From IMG/VR virus record IMGVR_UViG_3300025543_000050, positions 1 through 46,672 of that record: 46,672 nt of DNA; one strand, 5' to 3'. The position numbers and the translations under genes are program-made. Below, in pieces: positions 1,704 to 17,721 of this stretch. This DNA comes from a virus. Position 1 is the stretch's first letter, and every line of letters begins with the position of its first letter. The notes below the pieces were generated by a model, which did not search any database, was not told the DNA's origin, and saw only the letters and a list, made by a program, of their open reading frames with translations.

Positions 1704-2761
1704 TAGGAAAACCCTGTGGCTGGACCGCCGAATTGCAGCTTTGTGCCATTGGATCTGAATGATAGCAGATCCTCAGCACCAGCGCCTGAGCTCAGAGTCG
1801 GGGCTCCAGCATCACCTAAGTCGAAGTCAGCCGAGTAAGCCAATGTGTGTGTGCCGCTTTGAACAACCCGCAGCGTTGCCCACGTCCCCGCAGGAGGAAC
1901 TGCCGCGACCGCCAGAGTTGAGTTCTGGTCGAGTGTAACAACCGCCTCCGAGTTGTCGTTGATCGTCCAGGTGATCGTTGCGCCTGGGGTGAGTGTCTGC
2001 TCCGGAATGTACGGACCCCCGGTAACTGATTTGGCTACATTACCTGTGCGGTACAGCAGCAGCTCAGCCAGCACTGAAGCATCCATACGCTTGATCACAC
2101 CGTCGTCATTGATCAGGAACTCAGCAGTACCAACAAGTCCTGTGGTCAGTGCGGCTTTATTCTGGATTATCTGCATGTCCAGCTCTGTGATAGCAGCCTC
2201 GACATTGGTGGCATCCAGGTTGGTACCGGTGTTGTCGTAGGCAATGTCTGCTGTGACTACAACAGTTGTCCCTGACACTAGCTCAAGAGCTGTGCCTGCT
2301 GCGTTCCAGCGAATGTATTTATTGGCCACCGGTACTGGTAAAGCCGGGTCAGCCGCGCCGGTGTAAGTCTCAGGCAGCATGGTGGTTCTGGTCTGAGCAT
2401 CCAGTACTTGCTGCATCAACATGGTCAGCTTGTCCAGTGCATCTTCATGGACGTCAGGATAGAACGCACCCTGTGAGTTGAAGTCGGTCAACTGCTTGGC
2501 AGTGTATGCCGATCTCAGCAGCCAACTCGCCCCCGTTTCCAATGCACCAGCAGATCTGACTACCGTGCCACCAGCATCCTCACCGACCCCTGTGACCGTA
2601 TAGTCCACATTAAGAGTCAGCAGGCTGGTGACACCCAGTGCCGTGGTCTCATACACCTTGATCTCACTTTCGGTGGTGATCTTAAACCCATACGCAAACG
2701 CAGTGACTATGTCATTGCCAGAGTATGGACCAGCGTATGTGGCTATGGTGTTAATTGTCAT
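1703..2761 (-). CDS. Tail fibre protein with T7-type N-terminal domain
   Basis: This is a 352-aa protein. Residues 1-130 match the T7 tail-fibre N-terminal domain pattern (Phage_T7_tail): an opening beta region, then DYTVTGVGEDAGGTVV, then a helix containing FNSQGAFYPDVHEDALDKLTMLMQQV. That domain docks the fibre to the tail tube. The central part has a helical segment near residues 175-210, and the C-terminal part (residues 245-352) is beta-rich and would be the distal receptor-contacting part. It is shorter than T7 gp17 (about 550 aa), which suggests that the receptor-binding tip is supplied by the coupled downstream gene. The start has an AGGAAA ribosome-binding site. Confidence 0.85.
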   Translation of the reverse strand: MTINTIATYAGPYSGNDIVTAFAYGFKITTESEIKVYETTALGVTSLLTLNVDYTVTGVGEDAGGTVVRSAGALETGASWLLRSAYTAKQLTDFNSQGAFYPDVHEDALDKLTMLMQQVLDAQTRTTMLPETYTGAADPALPVPVANKYIRWNAAGTALELVSGTTVVVTADIAYDNTGTNLDATNVEAAITELDMQIIQNKAALTTGLVGTAEFLINDDGVIKRMDASVLAELLLYRTGNVAKSVTGGPYIPEQTLTPGATITWTINDNSEAVVTLDQNSTLAVAAVPPAGTWATLRVVQSGTHTLAYSADFDLGDAGAPTLSSGAGAEDLLSFRSNGTKLQFGGPATGFS

Positions 2762-2794
2762 GTCAGTTTTCCTGCAATTAGTGGGCCAAGTTTA

Positions 2795-5700
2795 TCATCT
2801 TTCAGGACCGTATAGCATCCTTTGGAGTGCCAAGTCTTCACCTTCCTTCATCACTTGATAAAGGTGCTCGCCTGTGGACCACGCCTGGTTCACCCCAGGA
2901 ATCCCGAGAGCAGCGCCAACAAACTTGGTACCGCCCTTCCATTGACCTTTGGTGATCTCTTCATCAGTGAACCCGCGAGCAGCCATTTCAGGGATTGTTC
3001 TTATTCCCTGCTCGATCACACCCAGCACTGGCGATGGGTTGTACCGGTACTCACCAAGTGATCCGTTCACCATGTCCCGAAGGACCGGCACTGATTGGGC
3101 TGGGTAAGTGGCAGTAGCCAGCAGCATCTTCTGGACATAAGAGTCGTCATCGTCATCGTCAGGCAGTCCGTTGCGCATCAGCTCCTCGGTGAGGACTGGC
3201 AGAACGAAGTAGAACATCGCCTTCGCGGCCACGCTGGTCACAGAGTACCGACCAGCACGAGCGCCTTGGACCAGATCCCTCTCCATGTTCCAGAGCGAGC
3301 TGAAGAAGGTCATGAACATGGTGAACATCCGGAACGCTTCAGACTGGTTGCGCATCAGGCTGGCCATGTCTTTGGTAGCACCGGACCCCTGAATGTTTTC
3401 AACAGCCCAGTCGGCGTAACGGAAGGCACGCTGCTCGTCACCCCACTGCTCCATGCCCTTGCTGTACGCGGCATGCCATGTTGGCAGGTCGACAAGGTAG
3501 GTCTGGATGTAGGCGATGTGCTTCATCGAGGCTTCTTGAACTGCTGCCTTGAACCCGCTCTTGCCTTCAATCACTTTCATGGCACTGTTGATCTCACGGT
3601 CCATTGTTTTGGCCCGGTGATTCATAACTTTTGAGTTATCGACAGCAAACTGCCACGCCGCCTTCATGGTATCTGGAGACCCGATGATGTTTCTCAGAGC
3701 CTTGTACACATGCTTAGGCCCAACTTCACCGGCCGTGTTATAGATACCCAGCAGCTGCATAAGACCGGTGCTGGCTTTGAAGCCCATCACACCCAGAGTC
3801 ACACCGAAGCGGAGCTTGCCGAAAGCCCTTTCCCATTCGTTTTTGGTGCGACCCTCGCGTCCTTCCTTGGCGATATCATTCAGCCATGGCTTGAACTGGG
3901 CGAACTCCTCAGGACCAATCACTCGTTTGATGGCGTCGGCCACCGGCTTATTACGGAACAACCGGTTGATCTGACGCACCGCATCGTGGAATGAGATGTA
4001 CTGAATCGTCTCGTGGAAGTGATTGTGAACCACATCAAGACTTAATCGGATCGGGTCATAGAACCCTGTCCGCTCGTTGGTTGCTCCGGCAGTGACTTGC
4101 TGCTGCAGGCTGGCGCCACCGGCGAACATAGAGTCGGTTTCGTTGTCCGCTTTTTCCTGTGATTCCTCGCCTCTCTGCGATCTGTACGGGTCGTACTTGA
4201 CCGGGTAATAACCACCACGGAACTCACCCCATTTGGTTTGAATAGGGGCCGCTTCAACTTTCGGCGGTGTCAGGCCTGTGGTCTTCCGGTGAACCTCAGC
4301 CAGCATCGGGTAGAGAGTGTCCATCTGATCCCAGATCTTTTGCACTAGGATCCAGTCACTCTCTGTCATGTATGCCAGCACTGCCTGCAGTTTTGGATTG
4401 TTGAGGGTGATGTCTTCTTCAACGTCAGGTCTGGCCCAGCCCTCACCGAGCAGCATCTTGCGCAGGTTACTCCGGTTGCCGACATTCAAAGCAACCGCCA
4501 GGACTTGGTGCCCCATCAGCACGCCATCGTTTTTTGCGTCCTTTATTTCAGGGATCAGCAGCTTTTTCAGGTGGCGCTTCTTGTCCTCCGGGGACCGCTG
4601 TTGCAGCAGCTCCATCACCGGTGCGCCCACTTCTTTCCACAGCTCCATGGATTGGTTGTAGGCCTCATTCATTGGCTGCATGATCAACCGGTGCATGAAC
4701 CCGGCACGCTCACCGCCATCCAGCATGGTCATCACCCACGGCATTTTTGACATCTGCGCCATGGCCCACCGGACAGTTTTGCGCTCCTCATTGACGGTGG
4801 TTCTCTGGGCACTGTAGACCGTGGGCTGCTCGTCCAAGTGAGTAACCACCTGATCAACCAGCTCGGCAAAGTTTCGCTGATCCTCAAGCAACGTGATCTT
4901 GTCGAGATACTTGGCCACATGCTCTATGTTCTTCACAGAGTTGTGGATGCCCTGCAAGTCGGAGAACTTGACCTTTTTCCAGTGGACCGAGTACAGCTCA
5001 TCCAGCACAGCCGGGTGCAGCGCCAGCGCGTCACCCTCGGTGGCGGTGCGCTTCTCAGCCCATGACTGCAGTGACTCATTTTTAGTGTCGACTGATTTCA
5101 TTGACTTCGATTTACGGAACTCGAACCGACCGAGGATCTTATCGATCTGCTCCATGTATCCGTTCTCAGCCCTCATGATCCGCTGACGGATTGACTTCTT
5201 GTTGTACCTGGCCATGAAATCAACGGTGGCTACAGTCTTCGCTTTCGCATCAGTGGCCTTGCGAGCGAGGAAGTAATTCAGCAGCTGGCGCATTTTGGCC
5301 TGTGCCGCTGCTTCAGTGTCACCCTGTGACAGAGCAACAGCAGCCTCCTGTGCCGCACGGATCTCAGCCTTGCGATATTTCTCAGGGAACATCTGGGTGT
5401 AGTTCAATCGAGCGATACGGTCCTCAGCCATCTGCTCCATCACCGCACGGTCGACCGACTGCTTCTTGGGCCCGCTGCGGAGCATTCTGAGCTCGGTCAG
5501 CAGCAGCTCAGCTTTCTGCTCGTTCTGAAGCGCCAGGTCTGCCATCTGAGCGATGGTACCGTCGTTCATGATGTCACCGTGCCGGTCGAGCATGACCTGC
5601 TCAGCAGCAGCTTCTGCGGCCTCTGTGAGGGTCGGCGTTCCGAGCAGGGTTTGGATAAACTCCTCACCGGTAGAGAATCCGAAGAAGGCGGCAGCGTCAT

Positions 5701-8700
5701 CAGGAGTCACACCTTCAGCACCTGGCACGGTCATTGCAAGCAGCTTCTGGGGGACGACTCTTGATTTCACGCCCCTCTTGTTTGTGCGATCCTCACCCAC
5801 CATCTCTTTGACAGTTTCCCGATCCATTTTGAATTGACCATTGGTCAGTCGTTCTATGGCCAGATAGATGGGTTGCTCTGATAAACGCTCTTTCTCGTCA
5901 TCAGTTACATCAGCTTTCTCTTGTCTCCACCAGAGCTGCTGGGTGCGCGTGATCTCATTGATCAGCTTAATGCGTAGTGTTTCGGCGGCCTCATCTTTGA
6001 CCTTGGCCACTTTTTCTTTGTAGGCAGCAAACTCTTCCTCGGTTTTGCCGGCCATGGCAGCGTCGGTGAACAATGGTGCGAACTTGTCGCGAGCCATTGC
6101 AATCTCGATTTGCTCTTCAGTGGCAATCAGACGGTCGAATACCTGACGCATCTCATCGTCAAGGTTGTTATCCAGCCGACCGCGCAGGGTGTTGTAAAGC
6201 TGCGTCATCCACCGGGCGAATACGCGGAACGCGTTCTGCAGCTCTATGGTAGGCGCCTTGCCTTCCATTAGATACTGCTCCCACGCACGGGCAAACTGTT
6301 CATGGGTGGCACGACGGATTGCAGAATCCTTGACAGCATCGCCGGTAGATCTGTATTTGATGTAGTCCTCGACATCCTGCTGAGTGATGGACCCAGCTGC
6401 GCCGGTGGAATCCTGACCTTGTGCAAGCAGGTTGGAAGACCCAGCCTGTGCCGGGTCGAATGCTGCGTTGACTGATCGAATGTTAGCAGGGTCGAACACC
6501 CCGACAACCAGGTAGGCGTTGTCACCGACATCTTCAGACTGTCTGACACTATCGAATCCTTTCTCCTGCAGGACGTCCATTACATAATCTGAGATTTCCC
6601 AGATGTCATCAATCGCCGGGTCATAGTTCGGGCTGTCTCTGTCTTCCATGACATCTTCGTTAAACTCTGCCCAGCCGCCCTGCTCATTGAACGCATCGAT
6701 AATGATTTGTCGGTGCTCTGGGTTGTCAATCAGGTCAGCAGTATTCTCAAGTTTCAAATACACCGGGTAAACATTTTTACCGTATTGCTTTGAATACCCT
6801 TCATCCACCGAGAAGAAGGTAGTCCCAGCTCTGCCAGGAGTGAACGCTTCTATATTTGCGGCTTGACTGCCGTGATACCACACCTTGCTGGTGTCGAACC
6901 CAGCTGCTTCAGCTGCCTGCTTCGATTGTTCCAGCACGTTGCCGCCGGTGCCGAGATAGCGGTTTGCCTCTTTGGCGATCTTGTCAGAGTGACGGAGCAA
7001 CCAGCTGTTAATGGCAGGCAGATGCTCACCGTCGTGCTTCATCTCCATCTCGTACATGAAGTGTGCAAACTCATGCAGGAAGGTGCTGAGGTTGGAAGAC
7101 TCAGTCAGTCTGATCAGGCTGTTGGCGGGGTCGTAGTATCCGTTGACTTGGGAGTTTTCTTGCCCTTCGGCGTTGAAGATTTCCTCTCCGACCGGAACAA
7201 CTTCATCCAGTCCACCTTGTGCAAGCCGTCCTCCGGTAGTATCCACGACGCGTTTTGCTGCTTCTTCATAACTTATATCCGCTGATTGTCTTGCGCCCAG
7301 ATCACCGTACAGGCGCTTCTCGTAATACCATAGCATAGCCTGAATGTCCGCAATAGACACATCCTTGCCACGACGCTTCAGGTTTTTCTGGGCCTTGTTG
7401 ACAGCTTCCAGCATGAATGACCGGTCACTGGCGTTATACGGCGCATCCTCTATATTCTCGAATGCCTGCTTGTACAGGGTATTAGCGGCTCTCTCAACAT
7501 CCGTGCCATTTTTGTAGTTCTTTTTCTCATACGAGTTTCGGTGCTCAACAGTCTTCGACAAGGCCTCGTCATCAGAGATGTTTGGCTCACCGATCATTTC
7601 CTTGAATCGAGCCAGACCAATCTTTCGACCCTTGCTGTCAGTGGTGTTCTCACCGCTGCCTGATACATTTTGCAGCAGTGACCCTCTGTATCTGTTGAAC
7701 GTGCGGGTCCACCAGCGATCCATTGTGAGGTATCCGTGCGACCCCATCAGGTTGGCATAGAAAGCGCCCAGCTTTGGACCGAACACGATGGCCGCACGAG
7801 GCAGCGTAACGTCAGCTTTATAGTCTGTTGAAAAATCAACACCTTTTTCTTTTGCCAGTTTGTTCAACTCACTGACGGTCAACTCTTCCATGAGATGGTT
7901 GTGCATCTCAACCGGACCCATCTCGTCGAGAAGGTTCTGGATGTTCTTAATATTAATGTTAATGCTTGCCTGACGGGTGTGTCCTCGTGATGTCGACAGC
8001 TTCCCGGTCTTCTTGTAGTTGCGATAGATATCAACAGCCATCGCGAAGTTGGGCACGACCTTCTGACCGTCAGATGTAATGGCGATCAGCGATGTCATCA
8101 GGTTACGAGCACTATCGTCAGTCTTCAGCTCAGGGAACTCTTCACCGAAGATGTCCAGAGCGCGTTGAAACTTTTCACTATACCAACCAGCACCCGACTT
8201 CTCCGGGGTCTCCATCTCGAATAACACTTCCTCAACCATCCACTTGGCGATCTTGGATGATGTCCCCGGTGACCGGTCGTCTTTTGGAATGTGTCCGTGC
8301 TTGCTTCTCTGACGAGCTTCTAAGGCCGCAGCAATGTCACGAGTTTTGTGAGTCTTGTCGGGGTGGAGACCGAACCGCTTCAGGGTCTCTGTGCCTTTAC
8401 GCAGCGACACTGCTTGATAGAACAGGACTCCCTGATTGTTTACCAGCTTGCCAATCGCAGCCTTCAGCGACTGGGATGGTTCCCAGTTGTTTATGTCGCC
8501 AGACAGTGCTGCCTCGATTGCCCCAGCAGGGTTGTCGAATCCTAACCAGTCGTTGGAATCCAGCGCCTTGAGAAACTGGCGCTCTTGTGGTGACCAATGC
8601 TCTGCATCCAACACCTCATCAAACCCGGACTCGATGTCCAAGTTGTTCAGGAAGTTGTCACGCACCGCATCATAAACCTCGGCTGCGTTATCGTATGCAG

Positions 8701-11700
8701 GCTGATTGAACACCTCATCCTGCGCACCCTCATTGACAGCCCAGTCAGGCAGCAGCCCGATCTTCTGATCAGCGAAGTGGGTATCTTCAACCTTGGCGGT
8801 ACGGTTGGTCTCACCATAGGGACCATAGTTTAACCAGCTGTTCTGGCCACGGGTTTCGCTTGTAAGAGCTTTCCTGGCCTCAGGTGAGTACATGGCCCAG
8901 TGAGCACGCCACGCGTTCTCCTCGCCTGCTGCACGGAATCCGACGCCTTCTTTAGCATGACCGAAGTAATCATGAACCACACGGAACACGTCGTTGGCCA
9001 GCATTGGCACGCCGTTTGCATCCTTAAACTTGGTGTCCTGCAGCAGCGGGTTATCCAGTGGATCGAATGTCTCGTCGCTGCCGAACCCATCCTTGGTGCT
9101 GAACACCCACATGTGGTTATTGTCGTTGATGTCGTCGATGACCAGACGCGGGGTTGCTGCGTAAGGGTCGATCAGATTCCCTTCAGCATCTGTCTCGGTG
9201 ATGAACTCAGCAACGAACCCGGTCTCGAGGATGGCCTCGTACTGGGCCACCGTCTCGTCGATCATTTGTTGATAGGCAGCCTTTACCGCTGGATCACTGG
9301 GGTTGTGCTCCATGGCGTCGAATGCCGCAGCAATGCGCTCAGCACGAGCCGGATCGACCGGGGCGTACATGGTTGGCGGGGTGTATTCCAACCCAACCGA
9401 TTCCATGTACTTCCTGGCAACACTCTCAATTACTGGGTTGTGCTTGGGTTCGAACCCTTCGATGTTGCGGGGGAGTCCTTGGAGGCTGCCGTCGCTCTCG
9501 CGGCCATTCCCCTGATCCTGCCCACTCTGTTGTTCCAGGAGCCGAGTGCCTCTTCGTACTCGCTCAGGCTTTTGTACTGACTTGGTCTCGGACTGTTTGG
9601 CAGCTTCTTCATTACTTATCTCCATGAACACCACATCAGGGGTGCCCATTGTTTCAATGTCCCATCCTTCTGGGGCTAATTCAGGGTTGAATGTTTCTCG
9701 TCCTACTTCCACAAAACCGTACTTGGCATACCCTTCGGTAAGTGGTCCTTCAAACGCATCAAGACGACGCACACCGTTGCGAATCGCCTCGGGCACCATC
9801 ACGCCCATTGCGCCTTCAATGGTGGAGTCAGGGTGTTTAAATACTGAAACCAGGTCACCTTGCCGAGTGATAGCAAAGCCAGCCTTACCATCATCGTATA
9901 GGAAAAGGTCCATCTTGGCATAGTCGTCTTTCGGCCAGATGACTACGGCCGCGCCATTCTTGTGGTCAGCCTTGGCTTTACTGAGTGCTTTGTAAAACTC
10001 ATCAACAATCGCAGTATCCTTCAGCGTAATGTTACCGGGCAGCTCTCCACGAGGGGTGCGTTCACCGGCGGCCTCGCGTTCTTTTTTAGCATTCTCCATT
10101 GCCTTGTCAGCAGATGCTTTGTCGGTGCCGATACCGAACGACAGTCGCGGACCGGTCAGTGTTCCTGATTCACTGGCAACACTCTGACTTTGCAAAGACG
10201 CTTGAGCTTTTTCTATCGCACTTTGAATCTCAGCAGGGGAGGCCCCGGCGACATAAAACTCATCACCGGACACATGGTAGGCCTTGCCATCGCTGGACTC
10301 GTGCAGTGCTGAGGCAATCAACTTCAGCATCTCATCGCCTGCGTTATGACCGAGAGAGTCATTCACAGCTTTAAGTGAGTCGGCATCGATGCTTGCAATT
10401 GCCGGGTATTTACCGGTGTCTTCAGAAAAAGCTCGACGGTTGTTAATTCCTGTCAGCTCGTTGCGATACAGGGCGTCGTATTTTTCATCAGGTGACATTG
10501 CATCAAAGGCAGCACGACGTTGAGTATCAACTCGACGATCAGACTGCCGGTTGTCAGTTTGCACGGTTTCACTTGCCGCACGTCGATCTGTGGCCGGTGC
10601 TACTCTTGATTGTATTTCTTCCGGGGATATTTCTGGGCGCAGTGCATCCAGTCGACCGGTCTGCGGCCCCTCTACCCTGAATCCGCGATCGGCATAGAGC
10701 TTGGCAACCGGTATCCCGGTGCGCTCTGACAGGGCTGCAAAGTAGGCAGGAACCACTTCACTCATGACACGAGCGTACTGCGGGTCAACCTGCCCGGTGT
10801 CGATGAGTTGGTCGCGCACGGTTTCGTAGATCCGTTGTGACTCAACATACTGAACTGACTGCTGCTCTTTTTCGGCAATGATTCCTTTGATCTGGTTCTC
10901 AAACTCAACCGCATCATTGGCCAATCTGAACGGTGTCGGAAGACTGGCGTCCGTGGTCATGTGTTCGCGCAGTGCTGTGAAGTGGTCGGTACCGGCCAGA
11001 GCTACACCGAAGTCGGCTATTGGTACTTGAATCTCCCCACCAAGGGTCGCTGCTTCGCGCACCTGAGCTGCCAGCAGCTTTAGCCCTGGGTCAGCATTGA
11101 TCTCCTCAGGCGTCTTTGTCTGCAGATACAGAGCGGTCTGAGGACCATCGATAAATACAGTGGTGTTCTGACCGGCATCAGCCTTCTCAACAAACTGCTT
11201 GAAGACGTCATCACTGCGCTCACGCACCGACAATTGCGACAGCGCGTCGTTGACCAGATCCAGATGAACCTGCGCCTTGCCGGCCTGCTTGGCCCTTTGG
11301 TCTTGATATGCAACAGCACTGCTGACGACGGTGGACGGGAGACCGATGGTAACGGCCGCCTGAGCGCCTTTGTTCGCAGCCTCGAGAGCACGGGGTGCCT
11401 GCTCGAAGATGTCATCGAGTGTGGACGATAGCGTCTCCTCGGTGAATGCGCCGTCATCAAACAGCTGCATGAACTCACCGGTCACGATGTTGCTGGTTTC
11501 CTGGAGCCCTTCAACAACGCCCTCGGTACCGACAGCTGTCAGATACCGACCGGCGATTTGACCTGCAATTTCCCTGCCAGTTTGGGTACCCAGAGCCTGC
11601 TTAACCTTGTTGCGGATTATTCTACGCATCACAGGGGTGACAGTACGACCCAGTGCTCGCAAGGTAACCATCTCGAGAGCGGCGTTTATACCACCCACAA

Positions 11701-12793
11701 CAATAGCACCGGTGGCTGCCAGGTCTGGATCCAGTTTTCGGCCACCCTGTCTCATGCCCTTGACGAAATCCGGGTCAAGGTTCTCTGTCGACAGTCTGGT
11801 CGGATCCAGCGGTTCGGAATAATCACGCGCAGGCTCAGGCACCGGGGTGTCCGGAAGCGGGACGACGTGCTGTTTGTTGTCGGTCATCTCAACAAATTCG
11901 TTGAACGCCAGACCGGCTTCAAGGTTGAATGCTCCGATGGCTACACCAGCACGACCACCCAGCTTTGCGCCAGCGATCCCGGTGGCGACCGCGCCAGGAC
12001 CGGTTACTACACCTACACCGAGACCAATGCTGCCGCCTATAGCTGTTCCCTTCAACCCTTCAGCAAGGATGTTACCCATGATGGGCAGCATCTCTGAAGC
12101 AACAATAGGTGACTCCTGGAGCCAGTTGTAATTGGGTTCTCCGTTTTTAGAGATGATTTCTTCGTTGTTGAATCCGGTGTTGGTGACAGTGTCACGGCGC
12201 TTCTGTATATCAGCAAGGTCGGCCATGTCCTGGTCGGTTACACCGAGCTCATTGACGCCAAGGTGCTTCCACAATCGACCCATGCCGATCTCGGATTCCC
12301 GCACGATATCTTGACCGCGTTGGAATGACTCAGTCAGATGATCAACGTATCCTTTTCCGAGGATTGCATCTTCCGCTTTCATCATGGCGGGGACTTCGTC
12401 GTGAACCACCATGGCCGAGTCGTAGTTGGTCAGGATCTCATGGGTTGCCGGGTTCTTGCGCATCATCTCAGGGATGTTGAGCATCTTGACAGCCTCGGCA
12501 TGCTCAATGCGCGGTCGATTGCCACGAATAGATTGGAGTGTCAGCCCAGTGGATTTCTTGAGTTTAAGCTCTTTGGCACCCTGCTCCGGGGGCACCTTCA
12601 TCGCTTCACTGAGTGTGCCGGGTGCAGTAGATCCGGTCAGTGACCGGATTTCATCCATGTCAACACTGTCAAACTGAGAGGGTTTGGCTGAGGGTTTTTT
12701 GACACCTGCCGCGACGACGGGCTCTGCTTTCTGAGGTGTAGTATCAGTCAGTGCTCTGATTTCGTTCAAGTCGACATTGTCAAATTGCGACAT
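2795..12793 (-). CDS. Giant polyvalent ejection-type protein (3332 aa): GGDEF, acetyltransferase-like, zincin and ADP-ribosyltransferase-like domains
   Basis: This single uninterrupted frame covers 21% of the genome and lies where T7-like phages encode ejected core proteins. Seen in order: a duplicated SQFDxVDxxEIRxLT motif (residues 2-16, 39-53); a glycine-rich hydrophobic stretch (249-300); a GGDEF diguanylate-cyclase-like domain (770-900) with ELTGINNRR, DADSLKAVND and SGDEF (842-846); an acetyltransferase-like region (915-1060); a domain with HDYFGH (1274-1279); an unnamed large-polyvalent-protein region (about 1450-1720); a zincin motif HEFAH (1907-1911); an ADP-ribosyltransferase-like domain starting WYHGS (1972-2110) inserted before the rest of the zincin (about 2150-2200); then about 1100 mostly helical residues with hydrophobic stretches and an acidic PDDDDDD run near the C-terminus. 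Polyvalent phage proteins are known to be injected with DNA and to protect or manipulate the host. Domain names are from motif recognition; activity is not shown. Confidence 0.85.
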   Translation of the reverse strand: MSQFDNVDLNEIRALTDTTPQKAEPVVAAGVKKPSAKPSQFDSVDMDEIRSLTGSTAPGTLSEAMKVPPEQGAKELKLKKSTGLTLQSIRGNRPRIEHAEAVKMLNIPEMMRKNPATHEILTNYDSAMVVHDEVPAMMKAEDAILGKGYVDHLTESFQRGQDIVRESEIGMGRLWKHLGVNELGVTDQDMADLADIQKRRDTVTNTGFNNEEIISKNGEPNYNWLQESPIVASEMLPIMGNILAEGLKGTAIGGSIGLGVGVVTGPGAVATGIAGAKLGGRAGVAIGAFNLEAGLAFNEFVEMTDNKQHVVPLPDTPVPEPARDYSEPLDPTRLSTENLDPDFVKGMRQGGRKLDPDLAATGAIVVGGINAALEMVTLRALGRTVTPVMRRIIRNKVKQALGTQTGREIAGQIAGRYLTAVGTEGVVEGLQETSNIVTGEFMQLFDDGAFTEETLSSTLDDIFEQAPRALEAANKGAQAAVTIGLPSTVVSSAVAYQDQRAKQAGKAQVHLDLVNDALSQLSVRERSDDVFKQFVEKADAGQNTTVFIDGPQTALYLQTKTPEEINADPGLKLLAAQVREAATLGGEIQVPIADFGVALAGTDHFTALREHMTTDASLPTPFRLANDAVEFENQIKGIIAEKEQQSVQYVESQRIYETVRDQLIDTGQVDPQYARVMSEVVPAYFAALSERTGIPVAKLYADRGFRVEGPQTGRLDALRPEISPEEIQSRVAPATDRRAASETVQTDNRQSDRRVDTQRRAAFDAMSPDEKYDALYRNELTGINNRRAFSEDTGKYPAIASIDADSLKAVNDSLGHNAGDEMLKLIASALHESSDGKAYHVSGDEFYVAGASPAEIQSAIEKAQASLQSQSVASESGTLTGPRLSFGIGTDKASADKAMENAKKEREAAGERTPRGELPGNITLKDTAIVDEFYKALSKAKADHKNGAAVVIWPKDDYAKMDLFLYDDGKAGFAITRQGDLVSVFKHPDSTIEGAMGVMVPEAIRNGVRRLDAFEGPLTEGYAKYGFVEVGRETFNPELAPEGWDIETMGTPDVVFMEISNEEAAKQSETKSVQKPERVRRGTRLLEQQSGQDQGNGRESDGSLQGLPRNIEGFEPKHNPVIESVARKYMESVGLEYTPPTMYAPVDPARAERIAAAFDAMEHNPSDPAVKAAYQQMIDETVAQYEAILETGFVAEFITETDAEGNLIDPYAATPRLVIDDINDNNHMWVFSTKDGFGSDETFDPLDNPLLQDTKFKDANGVPMLANDVFRVVHDYFGHAKEGVGFRAAGEENAWRAHWAMYSPEARKALTSETRGQNSWLNYGPYGETNRTAKVEDTHFADQKIGLLPDWAVNEGAQDEVFNQPAYDNAAEVYDAVRDNFLNNLDIESGFDEVLDAEHWSPQERQFLKALDSNDWLGFDNPAGAIEAALSGDINNWEPSQSLKAAIGKLVNNQGVLFYQAVSLRKGTETLKRFGLHPDKTHKTRDIAAALEARQRSKHGHIPKDDRSPGTSSKIAKWMVEEVLFEMETPEKSGAGWYSEKFQRALDIFGEEFPELKTDDSARNLMTSLIAITSDGQKVVPNFAMAVDIYRNYKKTGKLSTSRGHTRQASININIKNIQNLLDEMGPVEMHNHLMEELTVSELNKLAKEKGVDFSTDYKADVTLPRAAIVFGPKLGAFYANLMGSHGYLTMDRWWTRTFNRYRGSLLQNVSGSGENTTDSKGRKIGLARFKEMIGEPNISDDEALSKTVEHRNSYEKKNYKNGTDVERAANTLYKQAFENIEDAPYNASDRSFMLEAVNKAQKNLKRRGKDVSIADIQAMLWYYEKRLYGDLGARQSADISYEEAAKRVVDTTGGRLAQGGLDEVVPVGEEIFNAEGQENSQVNGYYDPANSLIRLTESSNLSTFLHEFAHFMYEMEMKHDGEHLPAINSWLLRHSDKIAKEANRYLGTGGNVLEQSKQAAEAAGFDTSKVWYHGSQAANIEAFTPGRAGTTFFSVDEGYSKQYGKNVYPVYLKLENTADLIDNPEHRQIIIDAFNEQGGWAEFNEDVMEDRDSPNYDPAIDDIWEISDYVMDVLQEKGFDSVRQSEDVGDNAYLVVGVFDPANIRSVNAAFDPAQAGSSNLLAQGQDSTGAAGSITQQDVEDYIKYRSTGDAVKDSAIRRATHEQFARAWEQYLMEGKAPTIELQNAFRVFARWMTQLYNTLRGRLDNNLDDEMRQVFDRLIATEEQIEIAMARDKFAPLFTDAAMAGKTEEEFAAYKEKVAKVKDEAAETLRIKLINEITRTQQLWWRQEKADVTDDEKERLSEQPIYLAIERLTNGQFKMDRETVKEMVGEDRTNKRGVKSRVVPQKLLAMTVPGAEGVTPDDAAAFFGFSTGEEFIQTLLGTPTLTEAAEAAAEQVMLDRHGDIMNDGTIAQMADLALQNEQKAELLLTELRMLRSGPKKQSVDRAVMEQMAEDRIARLNYTQMFPEKYRKAEIRAAQEAAVALSQGDTEAAAQAKMRQLLNYFLARKATDAKAKTVATVDFMARYNKKSIRQRIMRAENGYMEQIDKILGRFEFRKSKSMKSVDTKNESLQSWAEKRTATEGDALALHPAVLDELYSVHWKKVKFSDLQGIHNSVKNIEHVAKYLDKITLLEDQRNFAELVDQVVTHLDEQPTVYSAQRTTVNEERKTVRWAMAQMSKMPWVMTMLDGGERAGFMHRLIMQPMNEAYNQSMELWKEVGAPVMELLQQRSPEDKKRHLKKLLIPEIKDAKNDGVLMGHQVLAVALNVGNRSNLRKMLLGEGWARPDVEEDITLNNPKLQAVLAYMTESDWILVQKIWDQMDTLYPMLAEVHRKTTGLTPPKVEAAPIQTKWGEFRGGYYPVKYDPYRSQRGEESQEKADNETDSMFAGGASLQQQVTAGATNERTGFYDPIRLSLDVVHNHFHETIQYISFHDAVRQINRLFRNKPVADAIKRVIGPEEFAQFKPWLNDIAKEGREGRTKNEWERAFGKLRFGVTLGVMGFKASTGLMQLLGIYNTAGEVGPKHVYKALRNIIGSPDTMKAAWQFAVDNSKVMNHRAKTMDREINSAMKVIEGKSGFKAAVQEASMKHIAYIQTYLVDLPTWHAAYSKGMEQWGDEQRAFRYADWAVENIQGSGATKDMASLMRNQSEAFRMFTMFMTFFSSLWNMERDLVQGARAGRYSVTSVAAKAMFYFVLPVLTEELMRNGLPDDDDDDSYVQKMLLATATYPAQSVPVLRDMVNGSLGEYRYNPSPVLGVIEQGIRTIPEMAARGFTDEEITKGQWKGGTKFVGAALGIPGVNQAWSTGEHLYQVMKEGEDLALQRMLYGPER

Positions 12794-12803
12794 TTCTTAA
12801 CCC

Positions 12804-14465
12804 TTAGTCTAGTGATTTGTCCCGTCTTTCATACATTCCCCAGATGACTGCAGGGGTTTCCGGGATCGGTGGGTTCGCGCTTCTCAGCTTCTCGCGAATC
12901 TGGTCCAGCTTCTCACGCGGTATTTCATTGACCGCTTCCAGTAAGGGTGCCTTCCTATCCCATGGTATCATCCCGAAGAGCGAGTCCTCTATCACCATGT
13001 CGGCGCTTAACTGGTGGAGCATGTCAGTAAACTCTTGAGACGTGAGTTTAGCGCCTTTCTGAGTTTCTCGGAAGTCCTTCTCGGCATCGATCAATCCGTA
13101 AAAAAGATCGGCCCGTTCTCTTTGCACCTTCGACCACTTCGTTGATTTAGTGCCGATTACTTTTTCAAGCACATCAGTGGTCTGTGCAGCCCGGGTACGA
13201 CCGACCTGGTGGTCCGTCGCTTCGCTGCCTGTGGGGTTTCTGAGACTGTATTGCTTGTCGATCAGCTTCTTCTGATCGGAAGGTGACAGTCCTCCCTCAC
13301 GCGACACATCAAGTTTCAGGAACTCTTGCTCAGACATGGCGCGGATCTGGTTATACCGAGTCATGTCAGTTTTGATATTGTCGCCTGATGTCAGGTTTTT
13401 ACGCTGAGTGGGGGTCAGATTCTCCCATGCGTCAGGGTTTTGTGATATCCACTGGTTGATTGAATTTCCACTCCTGACATACAAATCAGCATCGTTGTAG
13501 CTGGCTACACTTTGTTCCTTCTTCACGGTCTCTTTCTGATTCCACAGGTACATCGCCTCACTGATCGCCTTGTCGCGCAGCTCCGGATCCTCGATGTTTC
13601 CGAGGGCTTCCATAACCTGACCGCGATCCTGGGCACTATTGACGGCTTTTGTAGCCAAGGCGATCCCCTGTGATGTCACATACTGGGTGTGCTCTGATTT
13701 CTGCTTGGCCACGATCTTGGCCTCGATGTCCACTTTATCCGGACCCTCGAGCATCTCACCGTAGGTGGTGCCGTCTCCGTGGGCCTTCTCATTCATCAGA
13801 TCCGTGGCGGCAGATGAGGATGAGTTGACGGCAGCCAGCAGTGCATTTTTGGCAAACGATGACCGGAAGTTCTGCAGCTTTTCGGCTTTTGCTTCCGCAC
13901 CGATGCCTGCCTTGTCAGCGGCGAGGGCTGCCTGCCTCTCACCGGCTATTCTAAATTCAAGCAGCTTTTCAGGCTGGGTGTGATAGAGCGCGGCATCTTC
14001 CAGAGAGTTTTCAATGGTGGCCTCAATGGTGGCCATCTCCCACGTATCCAGGCCTTTGGTGGAGTGTCGATCGATATCAACCCGTGCCCGAGTGATGTGG
14101 TTGTCAGCAACCTTGTTGAACATCTCCCTCGCGGTGGACGACTTAAACTGGCCGGCATAGGTTTCTTTCAGCTTGTCCAGACTCTCGCTAATGACAGGAG
14201 CGCCGTCATACGCGTCACGACCATTGGTGTTGAAGTACCCGGTCTTCGGGCTGAAGAACAGGTCATTCTTCTCACGCTCAAACTTTACCAGTGCGTCCTC
14301 TGCCTCAGTCTCATCACGCTTTTTCTGCATGATCGACAGACCGTCAGCAAGCTGTCCAGCGCCAGCAGCGAGGTTTTGAATACCACTATCAGCAGTACGA
14401 GCACGAGGGCCAGTAGCAACACCAGTGGTAAAGCGATTCGCTCCATATTGTTCAACCTTCGGCAT
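12804..14465 (-). CDS. Internal virion (core/ejection) protein
   Basis: This 553-aa protein is almost entirely predicted alpha-helical and rich in Ala, Glu, Lys and Asp, with no signal peptide. The N-terminus (VEQYGANRFTTGV, then ARTADSGIQNLAAGAGQLADGL) has the small-residue character common to the second core protein of T7-like podoviruses (the gp15 position). It lies between the gp14-like gene and the giant protein, with gaps of only 10 bp on each side, so the three probably form the internal core that is ejected to build the trans-envelope channel. I see no catalytic motif. Confidence 0.7.
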   Translation of the reverse strand: MPKVEQYGANRFTTGVATGPRARTADSGIQNLAAGAGQLADGLSIMQKKRDETEAEDALVKFEREKNDLFFSPKTGYFNTNGRDAYDGAPVISESLDKLKETYAGQFKSSTAREMFNKVADNHITRARVDIDRHSTKGLDTWEMATIEATIENSLEDAALYHTQPEKLLEFRIAGERQAALAADKAGIGAEAKAEKLQNFRSSFAKNALLAAVNSSSSAATDLMNEKAHGDGTTYGEMLEGPDKVDIEAKIVAKQKSEHTQYVTSQGIALATKAVNSAQDRGQVMEALGNIEDPELRDKAISEAMYLWNQKETVKKEQSVASYNDADLYVRSGNSINQWISQNPDAWENLTPTQRKNLTSGDNIKTDMTRYNQIRAMSEQEFLKLDVSREGGLSPSDQKKLIDKQYSLRNPTGSEATDHQVGRTRAAQTTDVLEKVIGTKSTKWSKVQRERADLFYGLIDAEKDFRETQKGAKLTSQEFTDMLHQLSADMVIEDSLFGMIPWDRKAPLLEAVNEIPREKLDQIREKLRSANPPIPETPAVIWGMYERRDKSLD

Positions 14466-14475
14466 CGTTATATCC

Positions 14476-14985
14476 TCATGGTGCTGTGGTTGTCAGCGAG
14501 CTGATCGGAGCATTGGCTGCACTGCTTGAGTTATACCACTTACCGGCCACCTGACCGCCGGTGCTCAGCAGAGACCCGACAGCAGAAATCTTACCGGCCT
14601 TCGCTGCGTTCTTGCCCTGCTGCCGGGTGAGCTTCGCCTGTTCGTTCATGCTTTTGACTTCATCATCAGCGGTAGATCTGATCCGAAGTGCATCAGTCTC
14701 ACCGATATCGAGAGTGTCGGTCTGAAGGTCCAGCGCAGAGCCTGACGACACGTCGACACCGCTGGCTCCAAACTTGGCACGTTGTTTGCTCATCAACTCG
14801 GCAACCTGGCGCCGGTGATCGTTTTCCTTCTCCGTGTACGCGTTCCGGGTTTTGACAGCTTCGTTCTCTGTCTGGCGAGCGTTATACTTCGCCACAGCGT
14901 CGGCTTGCTGCCCTTCCTGGTACATACCGTATGCGGATAAAAGCCCAGACCCTATGGTCATTGCTGCTGCTGCTGGAACACACAT
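14476..14985 (-). CDS. Internal virion protein, T7 gp14-like
   Basis: This 169-aa protein begins with a short hydrophobic helix (AAAAMTIGSGLLSAYGMY) followed by a long charged helix and then the GVDVSSGSALDLQTDTL segment that is characteristic of the gp14-like 'internal virion protein B' family. It ends in a second helical glycine/alanine stretch (ISAVGSLLSTGGQVAGKW). In T7, gp14 is ejected first and forms an outer-membrane pore; the same role is inferred here. It is 2 bp from the DUF2833-type gene upstream and 10 bp from the next core gene. Confidence 0.75.
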   Translation of the reverse strand: MCVPAAAAMTIGSGLLSAYGMYQEGQQADAVAKYNARQTENEAVKTRNAYTEKENDHRRQVAELMSKQRAKFGASGVDVSSGSALDLQTDTLDIGETDALRIRSTADDEVKSMNEQAKLTRQQGKNAAKAGKISAVGSLLSTGGQVAGKWYNSSSAANAPISSLTTTAP

Positions 14986-14987
14986 GT

Positions 14988-15389
14988 CTATCTCTCCAAG
15001 TGGAACCGGTGGAATAGCTCGCCATTCGCACCCATGGGGATCGAGTCATCGAAACGGAACCCGAGCCACTTCAACCAGTTAATGCTGAGACTGCTTCCAG
15101 CCCAGCAATAATTCTCTAACCGTGGGCAAATCTCAAGCATTTGATTCACAACAATTTTAGATTGTTTCGCGAACTCGCGATAGTGCTTGACTACGTGATC
15201 CGTGCCCAATGCCCACGGGACTCCCTTGCCCGTGAGTATATCAGTTTTAACCAGACCAAAAATAGCGAGAACATCGTCATCAACTGAAGCGACTGACAGG
15301 TAATTAGAGATCTTCAATCCCTGCAGGATCGCAGCCGCTGGCGTCTCAGAGGACGCAGCCTGTATCTCCAGTCTGTCGTCCTCACGCAT
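14988..15389 (-). CDS. DUF2833 / T7 gp13-like acetyltransferase-fold virion protein (start uncertain)
   Basis: The product matches the DUF2833 pattern from residue 1 of this call: MREDDRLEIQAAS, then GVPWALGTDHV, then LENYCWAGSSLSINWLKWLGFRF, an acetyl-CoA-binding-like fold without obvious catalytic assignment. T7 gp13 of this family is needed for assembly of the internal core. The start is a problem. Family members have about 15-20 further residues, and the frame does continue upstream as KCSPPDLKSINYIIDH, but there is no ATG or GTG there. The only upstream option is TTG at 15539, which would overlap the tail-tube gene by 104 bp. I give the in-frame ATG at 15389 (133 aa). A non-standard start or a base error near 15435 is possible. 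Confidence 0.7.
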   Translation of the reverse strand: MREDDRLEIQAASSETPAAAILQGLKISNYLSVASVDDDVLAIFGLVKTDILTGKGVPWALGTDHVVKHYREFAKQSKIVVNQMLEICPRLENYCWAGSSLSINWLKWLGFRFDDSIPMGANGELFHRFHLER

Positions 15390-15435
15390 GTGATCGATGA
15401 TATAGTTGATCGACTTGAGATCAGGCGGTGAGCAC

Positions 15436-17721
15436 TTAACCGCCGATATCGACCTGCGGGGTGACCGACAGGATCGTAAGGGGTAGTGGTGACCGTTGCT
15501 CAATTCTGATGCCGCCGCCCCGAGACCATGTGGGTTCAATGTAGATTTCCTCTTTCGTCGACCTCAACTCGATGGCGTCGTACCCATCACTCAGTGTCCG
15601 TGGTTTGATCTCACGCATCTCACCGGTGCTGCCGTCTTCCAGCCTTGGGCCGACCCAACCTCCACGAGAGTTCTCGGTCTCGATGACCACCTTGGACACT
15701 GACTGAGATCTTATCTTATCCGGATTGACCGGTGCACCTTGATCGATGTCAAGCAACTCGACGACGGTGGTGAAGGGTAGCCCGACATGAACCACGCTGT
15801 ATTCGCGAGGCAGTGTGATTGCGCCGCCGGAGACTACGAGATTATCGATGACCACCCCGTCTGCCAGCACGGCCACTGTCTTTCCCTCGAGATGATCCAG
15901 ACCGCTGATATTATCAGCAGCCACACCGTCGTAGGTCAGACCGCAGTCCACACAGAACGCGTCGACGGCCGTCGCCCAGTTGCGTGCTTCAAGTCGCTCG
16001 ACGTACCGGACGGTGCTGCCGTCAATGGTCCGCTTAACGATGACATAAACGGCGTCCCGCCCATCCTCAGTGATCGAGGTGACTGACTCAAAGACGCCAT
16101 CAGTGACGTGATGAGTCCATCCCCAGACCTCGTGTTCTTTCTGGTAGGTCAGACTCAACAGGGTGCCATCGCTGCGGATCATCCAGACAATGCTGTACGG
16201 CTCTTCAGCGTAGGTCATGTCGTCAATCGTATAGCCTTCGAACAGGTGCTCGGACATCAGACTGATATCGTTGCCTTTGAATTTATCGTCGGTGAACTCG
16301 TAACCTGTGTCACGGACCCTGGACCCTTTCTCCTGCACGAAGATGATCGAATCACCCACAATGATGGGAGCCACGTAGGACATGCCACGATAGCTCTGAA
16401 TCTTCACGCCCACCGTGTCTGGGGTCAGCACCTCATCCTGCCCTTCAGTGACCCGCCAGATACCACCAGCTGTGCCTAACACCAGCCCGTTCACCGGGAT
16501 GATGTGACGGATCTCATTGATCTGTCTGGCTGCGATAGTGAACTCAAGGCTGTCATCATCCCTTGATGGTCTGGACTTCCTCAGAGAGTCATAGATGGCC
16601 GTCTGAGTTGCCCACAACGTCTGGGGGTTTTCGTTAGTGTTGGCAAACATCTTACGCTGCTGATAGAAACCAACCGTCGCGGGTTGGTTATCAGCGCCTG
16701 TGAAAGGCTGATTGTCTTCAAGCGGCGCATCGCTGACCACCGGCGCGGTGTTGAAGTCAATGAAGTTCGGGTCTTTAGAATCGCCGATCCATCCAAAACT
16801 GCCGCTGTTGCCGTTTGGGTCTTTATAGATCCGGTAATACTCAACATCAGTCACTGAGTTCCAGTCCAGCCTCGACCCGTATGTGGTGGTGTGAGATGAA
16901 ATGTTGTGTGAAACCTCGGCGCAAGGCAGCGACTCTACACCATCCACTACGGCAGCGACCTTGTACCGATAGGTTTTGTTGTTCGCGCCGCCGCCGCCTC
17001 CTGCTGTACTCAATGCCAGCCCCGTCGGTGTAGTCACCGTGGGTGAAAAATCCACATCAGTCAGGGTCCATGATGAGTGACCGGTTCTGCTCAGCTCTCT
17101 GGGAACATACCCTGGGTGGCAGATTGTCATTACATCAGCGGTCTGAACGTAGGACAGTCTCGGAAGGTCAGCAGTGACATAGGTGGTGGTGAGCGTGAAC
17201 ACACGCGCAGCCGTACCGCCCGAGGTGTATGCAGTGTATGCAGAACCATCGACACCATCGAGGGTGTAAGTGTTAGCGCCGGTGGAGGTGATTCGGTAGG
17301 TTTTGCCATTCAGCTCGGTCATGCCGCCGACAGATGCGATGTAAACATCATCACCGGTGGAGTGACCGTGAGCGACATCAGTGATCTCAACCGGGTTGGC
17401 AGCAGTGGCGCCTGTGATTGTTCCAGCAGTCTCAAGCACGAAGCCGCCGTCCTTGATCACACGCATCTTCAGGTTCTCGAACACCAGCACATAAGTCTGC
17501 TCGGTGTTGAAGCTGAAGGGAATCAGTCGCGCCTTTGCTGAGGAGTCGTAGATCTCACCAATGAACTTGGTCCCGGGGCGTGAGTACAACCCACCCTGAG
17601 CCCGGATGAACATGTTTTCAGCAAACCTGACGCCATTGGTGTATTTGGCCAGGTCAGTGCGAGACCGCATCGCAGGTGCAAGTTCACCACCCGTGAAGTT
17701 ACGCTGAATGACCTGTGGCAT
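15436..17721 (-). CDS. Tail tubular protein B (T7 gp12-like nozzle)
   Basis: This 761-aa protein has the typical N-terminus of the podovirus nozzle family: RNFTGGELAP, RTDLAKYTNGV, ENMFIRAQGGLYSRPGTKF and then IPFSFNTEQTYVLVF. The central part shows the QQRKMFANTNENPQTLW and RQINEIRHIIP segments that are standard for the family. In T7 the homologue forms the hexameric nozzle that closes the tail and binds fibres. It overlaps the gp11-like gene by one base at 17721 and is followed by the core-protein genes, which is the normal T7 gene order. Confidence 0.9.
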   Translation of the reverse strand: MPQVIQRNFTGGELAPAMRSRTDLAKYTNGVRFAENMFIRAQGGLYSRPGTKFIGEIYDSSAKARLIPFSFNTEQTYVLVFENLKMRVIKDGGFVLETAGTITGATAANPVEITDVAHGHSTGDDVYIASVGGMTELNGKTYRITSTGANTYTLDGVDGSAYTAYTSGGTAARVFTLTTTYVTADLPRLSYVQTADVMTICHPGYVPRELSRTGHSSWTLTDVDFSPTVTTPTGLALSTAGGGGGANNKTYRYKVAAVVDGVESLPCAEVSHNISSHTTTYGSRLDWNSVTDVEYYRIYKDPNGNSGSFGWIGDSKDPNFIDFNTAPVVSDAPLEDNQPFTGADNQPATVGFYQQRKMFANTNENPQTLWATQTAIYDSLRKSRPSRDDDSLEFTIAARQINEIRHIIPVNGLVLGTAGGIWRVTEGQDEVLTPDTVGVKIQSYRGMSYVAPIIVGDSIIFVQEKGSRVRDTGYEFTDDKFKGNDISLMSEHLFEGYTIDDMTYAEEPYSIVWMIRSDGTLLSLTYQKEHEVWGWTHHVTDGVFESVTSITEDGRDAVYVIVKRTIDGSTVRYVERLEARNWATAVDAFCVDCGLTYDGVAADNISGLDHLEGKTVAVLADGVVIDNLVVSGGAITLPREYSVVHVGLPFTTVVELLDIDQGAPVNPDKIRSQSVSKVVIETENSRGGWVGPRLEDGSTGEMREIKPRTLSDGYDAIELRSTKEEIYIEPTWSRGGGIRIEQRSPLPLTILSVTPQVDIGG

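What the first reader, a model, noticed from the sequence alone, without database searches (positions are those of the whole stretch)
2795..12793. 3332-residue multi-effector protein in the ejection module
One reading frame carries at least five recognisable domains (GGDEF, acetyltransferase-like, HDxxGH domain, zincin, ADP-ribosyltransferase-like) between glycine-rich and long helical membrane-active-looking parts. It sits where T7-like phages encode proteins ejected into the cell before the genome. This suggests that the virion delivers a ready-made set of host-modifying activities. Polyvalent proteins are established as a class, but this combination, especially with a cyclic-dinucleotide-type domain, seems unusual.
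Basis: partly seen in the sequence, partly recalled or inferred. Interest (0 to 1): 0.85.

Follow-up and report, generated by a model that had tools for sequence, protein, structure and literature searches.

The report
Phage ejection protein with effector bay
This very large phage protein looks like a part of the virus particle that is injected into the bacterium and carries, in one fixed slot, a swappable set of host-modifying enzymes, including one that could make a bacterial signalling molecule.

Summary
It is this phage's version of BPP-1 Bbp10, encoded after T7 gp14-type internal virion proteins. In 60 complete relatives sampled by the backbone alone, the N-terminal and C-terminal parts have near-constant length, while the stretch between N-terminal part and zincin runs from 18 to 2329 aa. 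That slot holds shuffled effector modules (ART, GNAT, RadC, Zeta toxin, kinase, PBECR5, GGDEF, HDxxGH, glycosylase-like). GGDEF occurs in 7 of 68 proteins, window included. So it is a polyvalent ejection protein with a dedicated cargo bay: a new variant of a published class that already includes GGDEF proteins. Unreported as far as I found: the fixed bay, two unnamed enzyme-like modules, and a [FLY]-x-Q peptide just before the zincin in 65 of 67 relatives and after second-slot inserts in 11 of 11, a candidate cleavage site. Virion packaging, injection, cleavage and enzyme activity are inferred, not shown.

The parts
2795..12793 (-). Whole gene: 3332-aa Bbp10-type polyvalent ejection protein
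   Evidence: phrog_9880 925 bits; tblastn to BPP-1, AF, CP2, SR18, Vibrio phages
12353..12601 (-). LPD22-like N-terminal domain (aa 65-147); part of conserved backbone block N1
   Evidence: Pfam PF18834 E 2.2e-6, 28.3 bits against cut-off 28.6
11909..12061 (-). Glycine-rich hydrophobic stretch (aa 245-295)
   Evidence: direct reading; (9 Gly in 25 aa, hydropathy 1.36)
10649..11746 (-). Conserved backbone block N2 (aa 350-715), ends ..VEGPQTG..; upstream wall of the cargo bay
10058..10501 (-). GGDEF (SGDEF) domain (aa 765-912); Asp of SIDADSLK, Asn of VND, Asp of AGD and SGDEF 842-846 kept
   Evidence: Pfam E 6e-14; alignment to DosC; phage relatives
9608..10054 (-). GNAT-fold acetyltransferase-like domain (aa 914-1062)
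   Evidence: phrog_2563 E 2.5e-12; AF2 model and VIA-align Z up to 7.4, all best rows acyltransferases
8714..9556 (-). HDxxGH module (aa 1080-1360), predicted metal-dependent enzyme of unassigned fold
   Evidence: A6 invariants incl. H1274, D1275, H1279, E1291, H1298, E1313; AF2 pLDDT >95 in the core; >580 viral contigs
8426..8710 (-). Small helical module M2 (aa 1362-1456), found alone after N2 in L006
   Evidence: 53% identity to L006 ORF; L026/L024
7229..8386 (-). Module X (aa 1470-1855), DNA-glycosylase-like (HhH-GPD/DUF2419) predicted fold with invariant D1692 in TMDRW
   Evidence: AF2 pLDDT mostly >95; VIA-align DUF2419 Z 9.6, MagIII Z 8.8, AGOG Z 7-7.7, next unrelated 3.6; invariants
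6944..7162 (-). Zincin (HEFAH, aa 1907-1911), backbone; downstream wall of the cargo bay
   Evidence: HExxH in 66 of 66 homologues; Bbp10 zincin = CLCA_X in PMC3650047
6458..6901 (-). ART-PolyVal ADP-ribosyltransferase (aa 1965-2112), in slot B between zincin and C-terminal backbone
   Evidence: Pfam E 5.4e-12; alignment of the YHG motif
2798..6331 (-). Conserved ~1180-aa C-terminal backbone (aa 2155-3332)
   Evidence: at >=80% coverage in 35 phage records; C1..C3 length 1099, SD 36, in 60 relatives
9530..9538 (-). [FLY]-x-Q junction peptide LEQ (aa 1086-1088), GNAT|HDxxGH
8702..8710 (-). [FLY]-x-Q junction peptide FNQ (aa 1362-1364), HDxxGH|M2
8414..8422 (-). [FLY]-x-Q junction peptide FYQ (aa 1458-1460), M2|X
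7217..7225 (-). [FLY]-x-Q junction peptide LAQ (aa 1857-1859), X|zincin
6926..6934 (-). [FLY]-x-Q junction peptide LEQ (aa 1954-1956), zincin|ART
6419..6427 (-). [FLY]-x-Q junction peptide LAQ (aa 2123-2125), ART|C-terminal backbone
12804..14465 (-). Neighbour: 553-aa protein in the gp15/Bbp11 ('structural lysozyme') position
   Evidence: phrog_10475 and phrog_1044, N-terminal part only; no lytic Pfam domain
14476..14985 (-). Neighbour: internal virion protein, T7 gp14 family
   Evidence: Pfam T7_gp14 E 1.6e-9; phrog_418 E 5.7e-38
14988..15539 (-). Neighbour: internal virion protein (phrog_308)
   Evidence: phrog_308 E 4.1e-38

Best explanation
The protein is the large internal virion (ejection) protein of a BPP-1/AF-type podovirus, orthologous to Bbp10. 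A constant backbone (N1-N2 ... zincin ... ~1180-aa C-terminal part) packs the protein in the head and helps carry it and the DNA into the cell. A variable bay between N2 and the zincin, and a second small bay after the zincin, carry interchangeable enzyme domains. After ejection the embedded zincin would cut the chain at [FLY]-x-Q peptides at module junctions and free the domains in the cytoplasm: a GGDEF that would raise c-di-GMP, a GNAT and an ART that would modify host proteins, a DNA-glycosylase-like and a metal-dependent enzyme that would act on nucleic acid or nucleotides. Shown here: domain content, orthology, synteny, bay architecture, module shuffling, junction motif statistics, retained catalytic residues. 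Inferred: packaging, ejection, cleavage, activities and targets.
For: Orthology to Bbp10 over the C-terminal part; homologues cover >=80% of it in 35 phage records. Gene order: two internal virion proteins (one T7_gp14), gp15-position gene, this gene, tail fibre, as in BPP-1. In 60 complete relatives found with the backbone alone, start-to-N2 is 300 aa (SD 36) and C1..C3 1099 aa (SD 36), while the bay is 18-2329 aa (SD 408); of 27 hits of window-derived modules 26 lie in the bay and one in slot B (ART column ignored because that HMM was a stale copy). Pfam finds ART-PolyVal, GNAT, RadC, Zeta toxin, Kinase-PolyVal and PBECR5 in sampled bays. Module order varies: X-HDxxGH, HDxxGH-X, X-GNAT-HDxxGH, GNAT-HDxxGH-M2. 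[FLY]-x-Q before the zincin in 65/67 (shuffled 19.2 +- 3.5), Q-specific; before the C-terminal part 11/11 with slot B filled against 14/57 when empty; 51 different 9-mers code for 65 sites, so the peptide and not the DNA is kept. Bbp10's zincin was placed by others next to the self-cleaving CLCA metalloproteases (PMC3650047); autoproteolysis of polyvalent proteins by zincins was proposed in PMC5512222.
Against: No proteomics or ejection data were found for any member. The GGDEF domain has SGDEF and no RxxD I-site at the usual place, so cyclase activity is uncertain. The junction motif was noticed by eye and then tested partly on the same relatives, which share ancestry; in the window it is absent at N2|GGDEF and GGDEF|GNAT, and enrichment around HDxxGH is weak (23/65 against 13.6). 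Some ART domains may carry the motif as their own tail. N4 vRNAP, which has a zincin, is packaged uncut according to PMC5512222.
Confidence: 0.72

Rival explanations
1. The protein is a structural/injection device, and the domains in the bay are degenerate spacers or DNA-condensing fillers that no longer catalyse anything.
For: The bay can be almost empty (18 aa; 12 aa in Vibrio phage MZH0603), so its content is dispensable for the backbone's role. GGDEF is SGDEF here, and one of the tandem GGDEF copies in L154/L157 is degenerate.
Against: Catalytic positions are invariant across divergent copies (HExxH 66/66; HDxxGH set in 57 sequences; D1692 in 50; D..N..D..GDEF). Zeta toxin, RadC, kinase and RNase domains make unlikely fillers.
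Confidence: 0.1
2. The effectors act late in the producing cell (where the gene is expressed with the virion genes), for example on lysis timing or against rival elements, and not after injection into the next cell.
For: The gene lies among the late structural genes, so the protein is presumably made late.
Against: Fusion to a conserved backbone in the ejection-gene position and the T7/BPP-1 gene order fit delivery; polyvalent proteins of N4 and P1 are packaged (PMC5512222).
Confidence: 0.13
3. It is a lysin (cell-wall hydrolase), as several database records name its relatives ('lysin', 'lysis protein', 'crystallin beta/gamma motif-containing protein').
For: Annotation of Nsp-JY18, RapA, BPP-1 records and of OANV1 gp16 in PMC9239159.
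Against: No muramidase, transglycosylase, amidase or peptidoglycan-peptidase family matches any slice; the annotated structural lysozyme is the upstream gene in the relatives AF, UFJF_PfDIW6 and Carin1.
Confidence: 0.03
4. The [FLY]-x-Q junction peptide is not a protease site but a docking or unfolding signal (for passage through the tail) or a by-product of module exchange. (This rival concerns the release step only and is compatible with the rest of the best explanation.)
For: No cleavage has been shown; the motif is weak around HDxxGH.
Against: Codons of the motif vary (51 of 65 different), which speaks against a DNA recombination signal; the motif is Q-specific and sits next to a peptidase in nearly every relative.
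Confidence: 0.4

Closest known systems
Bordetella phage BPP-1 Bbp10 (phrog_9880 family), with AF gp16, CP2 ORF24, Caulobacter SR18, Vibrio MZH0603 homologues
   Same: Same backbone, same gene position, HExxH zincin at the same place
   Different: Bbp10 is 2052 aa with a short bay (165 aa), and none of this protein's bay modules was matched in it
Polyvalent proteins (Iyer et al. 2017, PMC5512222), e.g. Acetonema longum WP_004096050.1 with GGDEF, SNF2, methyltransferase, zincin, ART
   Same: Several unrelated enzyme domains plus zincin and ART in one giant chain near virion genes; GGDEF precedent
   Different: Here the domains sit in a fixed bay of a podovirus ejection backbone; HDxxGH and the glycosylase-like module match no Pfam family, and the words glycosylase and hydroxylase do not occur in that paper's text
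N4 virion RNA polymerase
   Same: Giant packaged podovirus protein with a zincin that enters the cell with the phage DNA (PMC5512222)
   Different: Carries an RNA polymerase; no such family matched here
T7 gp14-gp15-gp16 ejectosome
   Same: Gene order and a T7_gp14-family neighbour
   Different: No detectable similarity of this protein to gp16 in Pfam or PHROGs; effector modules are absent from T7 gp16 (own knowledge)
Solo GGDEF protein of Yua-like phages (e.g. Pseudomonas phage Churro gp42)
   Same: Closest GGDEF among named phages by BLAST (42%), same SGDEF variant
   Different: A 157-aa stand-alone gene next to an annotated antirestriction gene

Membership tests
Bbp10 / phrog_9880 family | Homology over the ~1180-aa C-terminal part and N2 | tested here: met
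   phrog_9880 925 bits; tblastn matches over >=80% in 35 records
Bbp10 / phrog_9880 family | Position after internal virion protein genes and before the tail fibre | tested here: met
Polyvalent proteins (Iyer 2017) | Several unrelated enzymatic domains in one polypeptide | tested here: met
   GGDEF and ART-PolyVal by Pfam; GNAT and glycosylase-like by fold; zincin by motif and homology
Polyvalent proteins (Iyer 2017) | Transfer into the host during infection | not testable with these tools
   needs virion proteomics or injection assay
GGDEF diguanylate cyclase | GGDEF domain above family cut-off | tested here: met
   52.6 bits against 23.8
GGDEF diguanylate cyclase | Canonical signature GG(D/E)EF and metal-binding residues | tested here: inconclusive
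   SGDEF instead of GGDEF; the two Asp and the Asn of the metal and substrate site are kept
GGDEF diguanylate cyclase | Inhibitory RxxD I-site upstream of the signature | tested here: not met
   direct reading of ..SSDGKAYHVSGDEF..; the I-site is not required for activity (own knowledge)
GNAT acetyltransferase | GNAT fold | tested here: met
   18 best VIA-align rows are GNAT or related acyltransferase domains, Z 4.0-7.4; moderate, since Z under 8 alone is weak
GNAT acetyltransferase | Acetyl-CoA-binding (R/Q)xxGx(G/A) motif | tested here: inconclusive
   no clear canonical motif by eye in aa 914-1062
HhH-GPD DNA glycosylase / DUF2419 | Shared fold | tested here: inconclusive
   Nine best rows are all of this superfamily: Z 9.6 (7ugk), 8.8 (1pu7), 7.0-7.7 (AGOG), next unrelated 3.6; but helical folds can reach such values by chance
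HhH-GPD DNA glycosylase / DUF2419 | Sequence-family match | tested here: inconclusive
   no Pfam or PDB-sequence match; invariant D1692 could be the catalytic Asp
Aromatic amino acid hydroxylase (HDxxGH module) | 2-His-1-Glu triad in the hydroxylase fold | tested here: inconclusive
   HDxFGH motif shared, but hhalign probability 2.4% and Foldseek E 0.55 with no superposition
ART-PolyVal | Pfam family match above cut-off | tested here: met
   47.1 bits against 31.2
ART-PolyVal | H-Y-D active site | tested here: inconclusive
   His of YHG kept (aa 1974); Tyr position seems to read F; FDP kept
Zincin metallopeptidase (CLCA_X) | HExxH | tested here: met
   HEFAH; 66 of 66 relatives; third ligand not established

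The most novel reading that the evidence does not exclude
A podovirus family delivers a self-processing effector polyprotein: an embedded CLCA_X-type zincin cuts at a short recurrent [FLY]-x-Q code at cargo junctions, so that any enzyme inserted with this tail into the bay is released separately in the new host. Two cargo types (HDxxGH enzyme; DNA-glycosylase-like enzyme) are unnamed effector families present in hundreds of viral contigs.
Probability: 0.35. Interest if true: 0.82.

Novelty: new variant of a known kind. Interest (0 to 1): 0.62.

Why it matters
It turns a vague idea (giant phage proteins with many domains) into a defined architecture with walls, slots and a candidate release signal that can be tested on cultured phages. 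If virions carry c-di-GMP-making, ADP-ribosylating, base-excising and RNA-cutting activities in one exchangeable bay, the bay of each phage is a readable list of what its host's defences and physiology demand, and a catalogue of unnamed counter-defence enzymes.

Tried and rejected
(1) HDxxGH as an aromatic amino acid hydroxylase: Foldseek put TPH/PAH first but at E 0.55 and rmsd 19 A; VIA-align listed none; hhalign of 69 filtered sequences against PAH aligned only the 11-residue motif. Kept as a lead only. (2) HDxxGH and the glycosylase-like module in PDB by sequence: nothing convincing. (3) PADLOC: no defence-system match for any slice. (4) Prophages with this backbone: a pattern scan of one genome for each of 84,980 species confirmed none, but patterns this strict may miss relatives. 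(5) A DNA recombination signal behind the junction motif: codons differ, so unlikely. (6) A narrower motif (hydrophobic-[LFY]-x-Q) gave 38/67 before the zincin and only modest enrichment at other boundaries. (7) The 'ART' HMM was a stale copy of another model (it behaves as the zincin model); its counts were discarded and ART statements rest on Pfam. (8) Literature: no virion proteomics of Bbp10 relatives in the open-access library; BPP-1 mass spectrometry identified only the two capsid proteins in what I could read. (9) Rfam and tRNA scans of the window: nothing. (10) Alignments A4 and A5 contained misaligned short rows and were replaced by A6 and A7.

Full report
WHAT IS THERE. The gene runs on the minus strand from 12793 to 2795 and encodes 3332 aa without a stop. 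The window is an IMG/VR virus record of 46,672 bases, with no close DNA relative of this gene among deposited phages. Whole-protein Pfam scanning finds GGDEF and an LPD22-like stretch; slices add ART-PolyVal. PHROGs identify the backbone as phrog_9880 (925 bits, unknown function) and give separate families for the GGDEF, acetyltransferase-like and HDxxGH regions.

FAMILY AND POSITION. The C-terminal 1183 aa match 43 phage records, 35 of them over at least 80%: Vibrio phages MZH0603 and PS25B.1 at 59%, and at about 30% Cobetia Carin1, Pseudomonas AF and HU1, Bordetella BPP-1 (Bbp10), Caulobacter SR18/RapA and Xanthomonas CP2. Upstream of the gene the window encodes portal (phrog_332), protease, major head protein, tail proteins, two internal virion proteins (phrog_308; phrog_418 = Pfam T7_gp14, E 1.6e-9) and a 553-aa protein related to the N-terminal part of the relatives' 'endolysin'; downstream lies a tail-fibre-like gene. 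BPP-1 has the same order (Bbp12 internal virion protein, Bbp11, Bbp10, Bbp9). This is the ejection-protein position of T7-like phages. That the protein is packaged and ejected is an inference from position and family; no proteomics was found.

THE CARGO BAY. BLAST of the window protein against its relatives showed constant blocks (N1 about aa 1-170, N2 350-715, zincin 1878-1950, C-terminal 2155-3332) and lineage-specific stretches between N2 and the zincin. Vibrio phage MZH0603 has 12 aa in that place. HMMs for each block and module, run over proteins found with the modules as bait, gave the order N1-N2-[modules]-zincin-C in nearly every protein with a readable backbone, while the modules permute: X-HDxxGH, HDxxGH-X, X-GNAT, X-GNAT-HDxxGH, GNAT-HDxxGH. 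Because that set was found through the modules, I repeated it on 80 viral contigs found only through the C-terminal backbone. Of 68 non-redundant proteins (window included), 60 are complete at both ends: start to N2 is 300 aa (SD 36), C1 to C3 1099 aa (SD 36), the bay 18 to 2329 aa (SD 408); a second slot between zincin and C-terminal part is empty in most and filled in 9 of the 60. Pfam finds in ten sampled bays Zeta toxin, RadC, ART-PolyVal, GNAT and PBECR5, and Kinase-PolyVal and further ART and PBECR5 in others; slot B is mostly ART. These are largely the domain types listed for polyvalent proteins by Iyer et al. (PMC5512222). The 'ART' HMM was by mistake a copy of another model, so those ART counts are not used.

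THE MODULES. GGDEF: aligned with DosC and WspR, it keeps the metal-binding Asp of SIDADSLK, the Asn of VND and the Asp of AGD, with SGDEF as signature. It occurs in 7 of 68 sampled backbones, always in the bay; two distant ones (L242, L249) have canonical GGDEF, which suggests more than one acquisition. Its nearest relative among named phages is a solo protein of Yua-like phages, next to a gene annotated as antirestriction. Iyer et al. already discuss GGDEF in polyvalent proteins, so this domain by itself is not new. GNAT: the 18 best structure matches are GNAT or related acyltransferase domains, Z 4.0-7.4. HDxxGH (aa 1080-1360): 57 homologues share H1274, D1275, H1279, E1291, H1298 and E1313; the model is confident (pLDDT >95) but has no convincing fold match; the shared HDxFGH motif with phenylalanine hydroxylases is the only link. 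Module X (aa 1470-1855): an all-helical confident model whose nine best matches are all HhH-GPD-type DNA glycosylases or the related queuosine hydrolase DUF2419 (Z 7.0-9.6; next 3.6); the conserved GPK..F..NL and invariant TMDRW Asp sit where glycosylases have the hairpin and catalytic Asp (inference from own knowledge of the family). HDxxGH and X match no Pfam family, but are in at least 583 and 411 viral contigs. Zincin: HExxH in 66 of 66; Bbp10's zincin was grouped as CLCA_X, sister of the self-cleaving CLCA metalloproteases (PMC3650047). ART: His kept, the Tyr position seems to read Phe.

THE JUNCTION PEPTIDE. Printing the residues before the zincin showed a recurrent peptide (LLFQ, DIFKQ, LEQ, FRQ). 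The general form [FLY]-x-Q lies within the ~41-residue stretch up to the zincin in 65 of 67 relatives (shuffled 19.2, SD 3.5, maximum 30), and no residue other than Q shows this. Before the C-terminal part it is in 11 of 11 proteins with slot B filled (window included) but 14 of 57 with slot B empty (shuffled 2.5 and 10.5); it is thus gained together with the insert. Codons differ (51 different 9-mers in 65). It is enriched on both sides of X (27/50 and 25/52 against 15.0 and 9.9) and more weakly around HDxxGH. In the window protein one copy lies at each of six successive junctions (aa 1086, 1362, 1458, 1857, 1954, 2123) and none at N2|GGDEF or GGDEF|GNAT. Limits: noticed post hoc, tested partly on the sequences in which it was seen, and shuffling does not correct for shared ancestry. 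The simplest reading, in line with the autoproteolysis proposed for polyvalent zincins (PMC5512222), is a processing site.

MECHANISM, STEP BY STEP. Late expression and packaging (inferred from position); ejection with the internal virion proteins (inferred); cutting at [FLY]-x-Q by the zincin (hypothesis, about 0.35); action of freed enzymes: c-di-GMP synthesis by GGDEF (plausible, untested), protein modification by GNAT and ART (inferred from families), DNA or nucleoside action by X (inferred from fold), metal-dependent reaction by HDxxGH (inferred from invariants).

VERDICT. The new elements are the fixed cargo bay in a podovirus ejection backbone, two unnamed modules, and the candidate release code.

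Noticed in passing
L006 7982-10849 and 16235-23668: In this relative the protein is encoded in two separate frames: N1-N2-M2 in the first, and a bay stretch, zincin and C-terminal part in the second, with about 5 kb of other genes between. Real split or assembly rearrangement not decided.
   Followed up: partly
window 12804-14465: The gp15/Bbp11-position protein (553 aa) is shorter than its 'structural lysozyme' counterparts (about 700-720 aa) and matches only their N-terminal part; no lytic domain was found, so the muralytic part may be missing or elsewhere.
   Followed up: partly
L016 (PQ492659, Limnohabitans phage DC33): The record's taxonomy line says Inoviridae, yet it is a 39-kb genome that encodes a Bbp10-type polyvalent protein; probably misclassified.
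   Followed up: no
L013, L014, L017, L018, L008: Bbp10-type proteins are deposited as 'lysin', 'lysis protein', 'coil containing protein' or 'crystallin beta/gamma motif-containing protein'; these names have no support from the domain searches here.
   Followed up: yes
L154 aa 816-1162 and L157 aa 742-1079 of the large ORFs: Two relatives carry tandem GGDEF-like domains, one copy degenerate.
   Followed up: partly
L010 18147-18364 (MG592551.1 28101-28318): Vibrio phage 1.185.O is annotated with four 'CRISPR spacers' inside a hypothetical protein gene; possibly a coding tandem repeat.
   Followed up: no
window 35167-37749: 860-aa replication protein with a weak RepB-primase-like N-terminus and a DUF5906 domain.
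   Followed up: no
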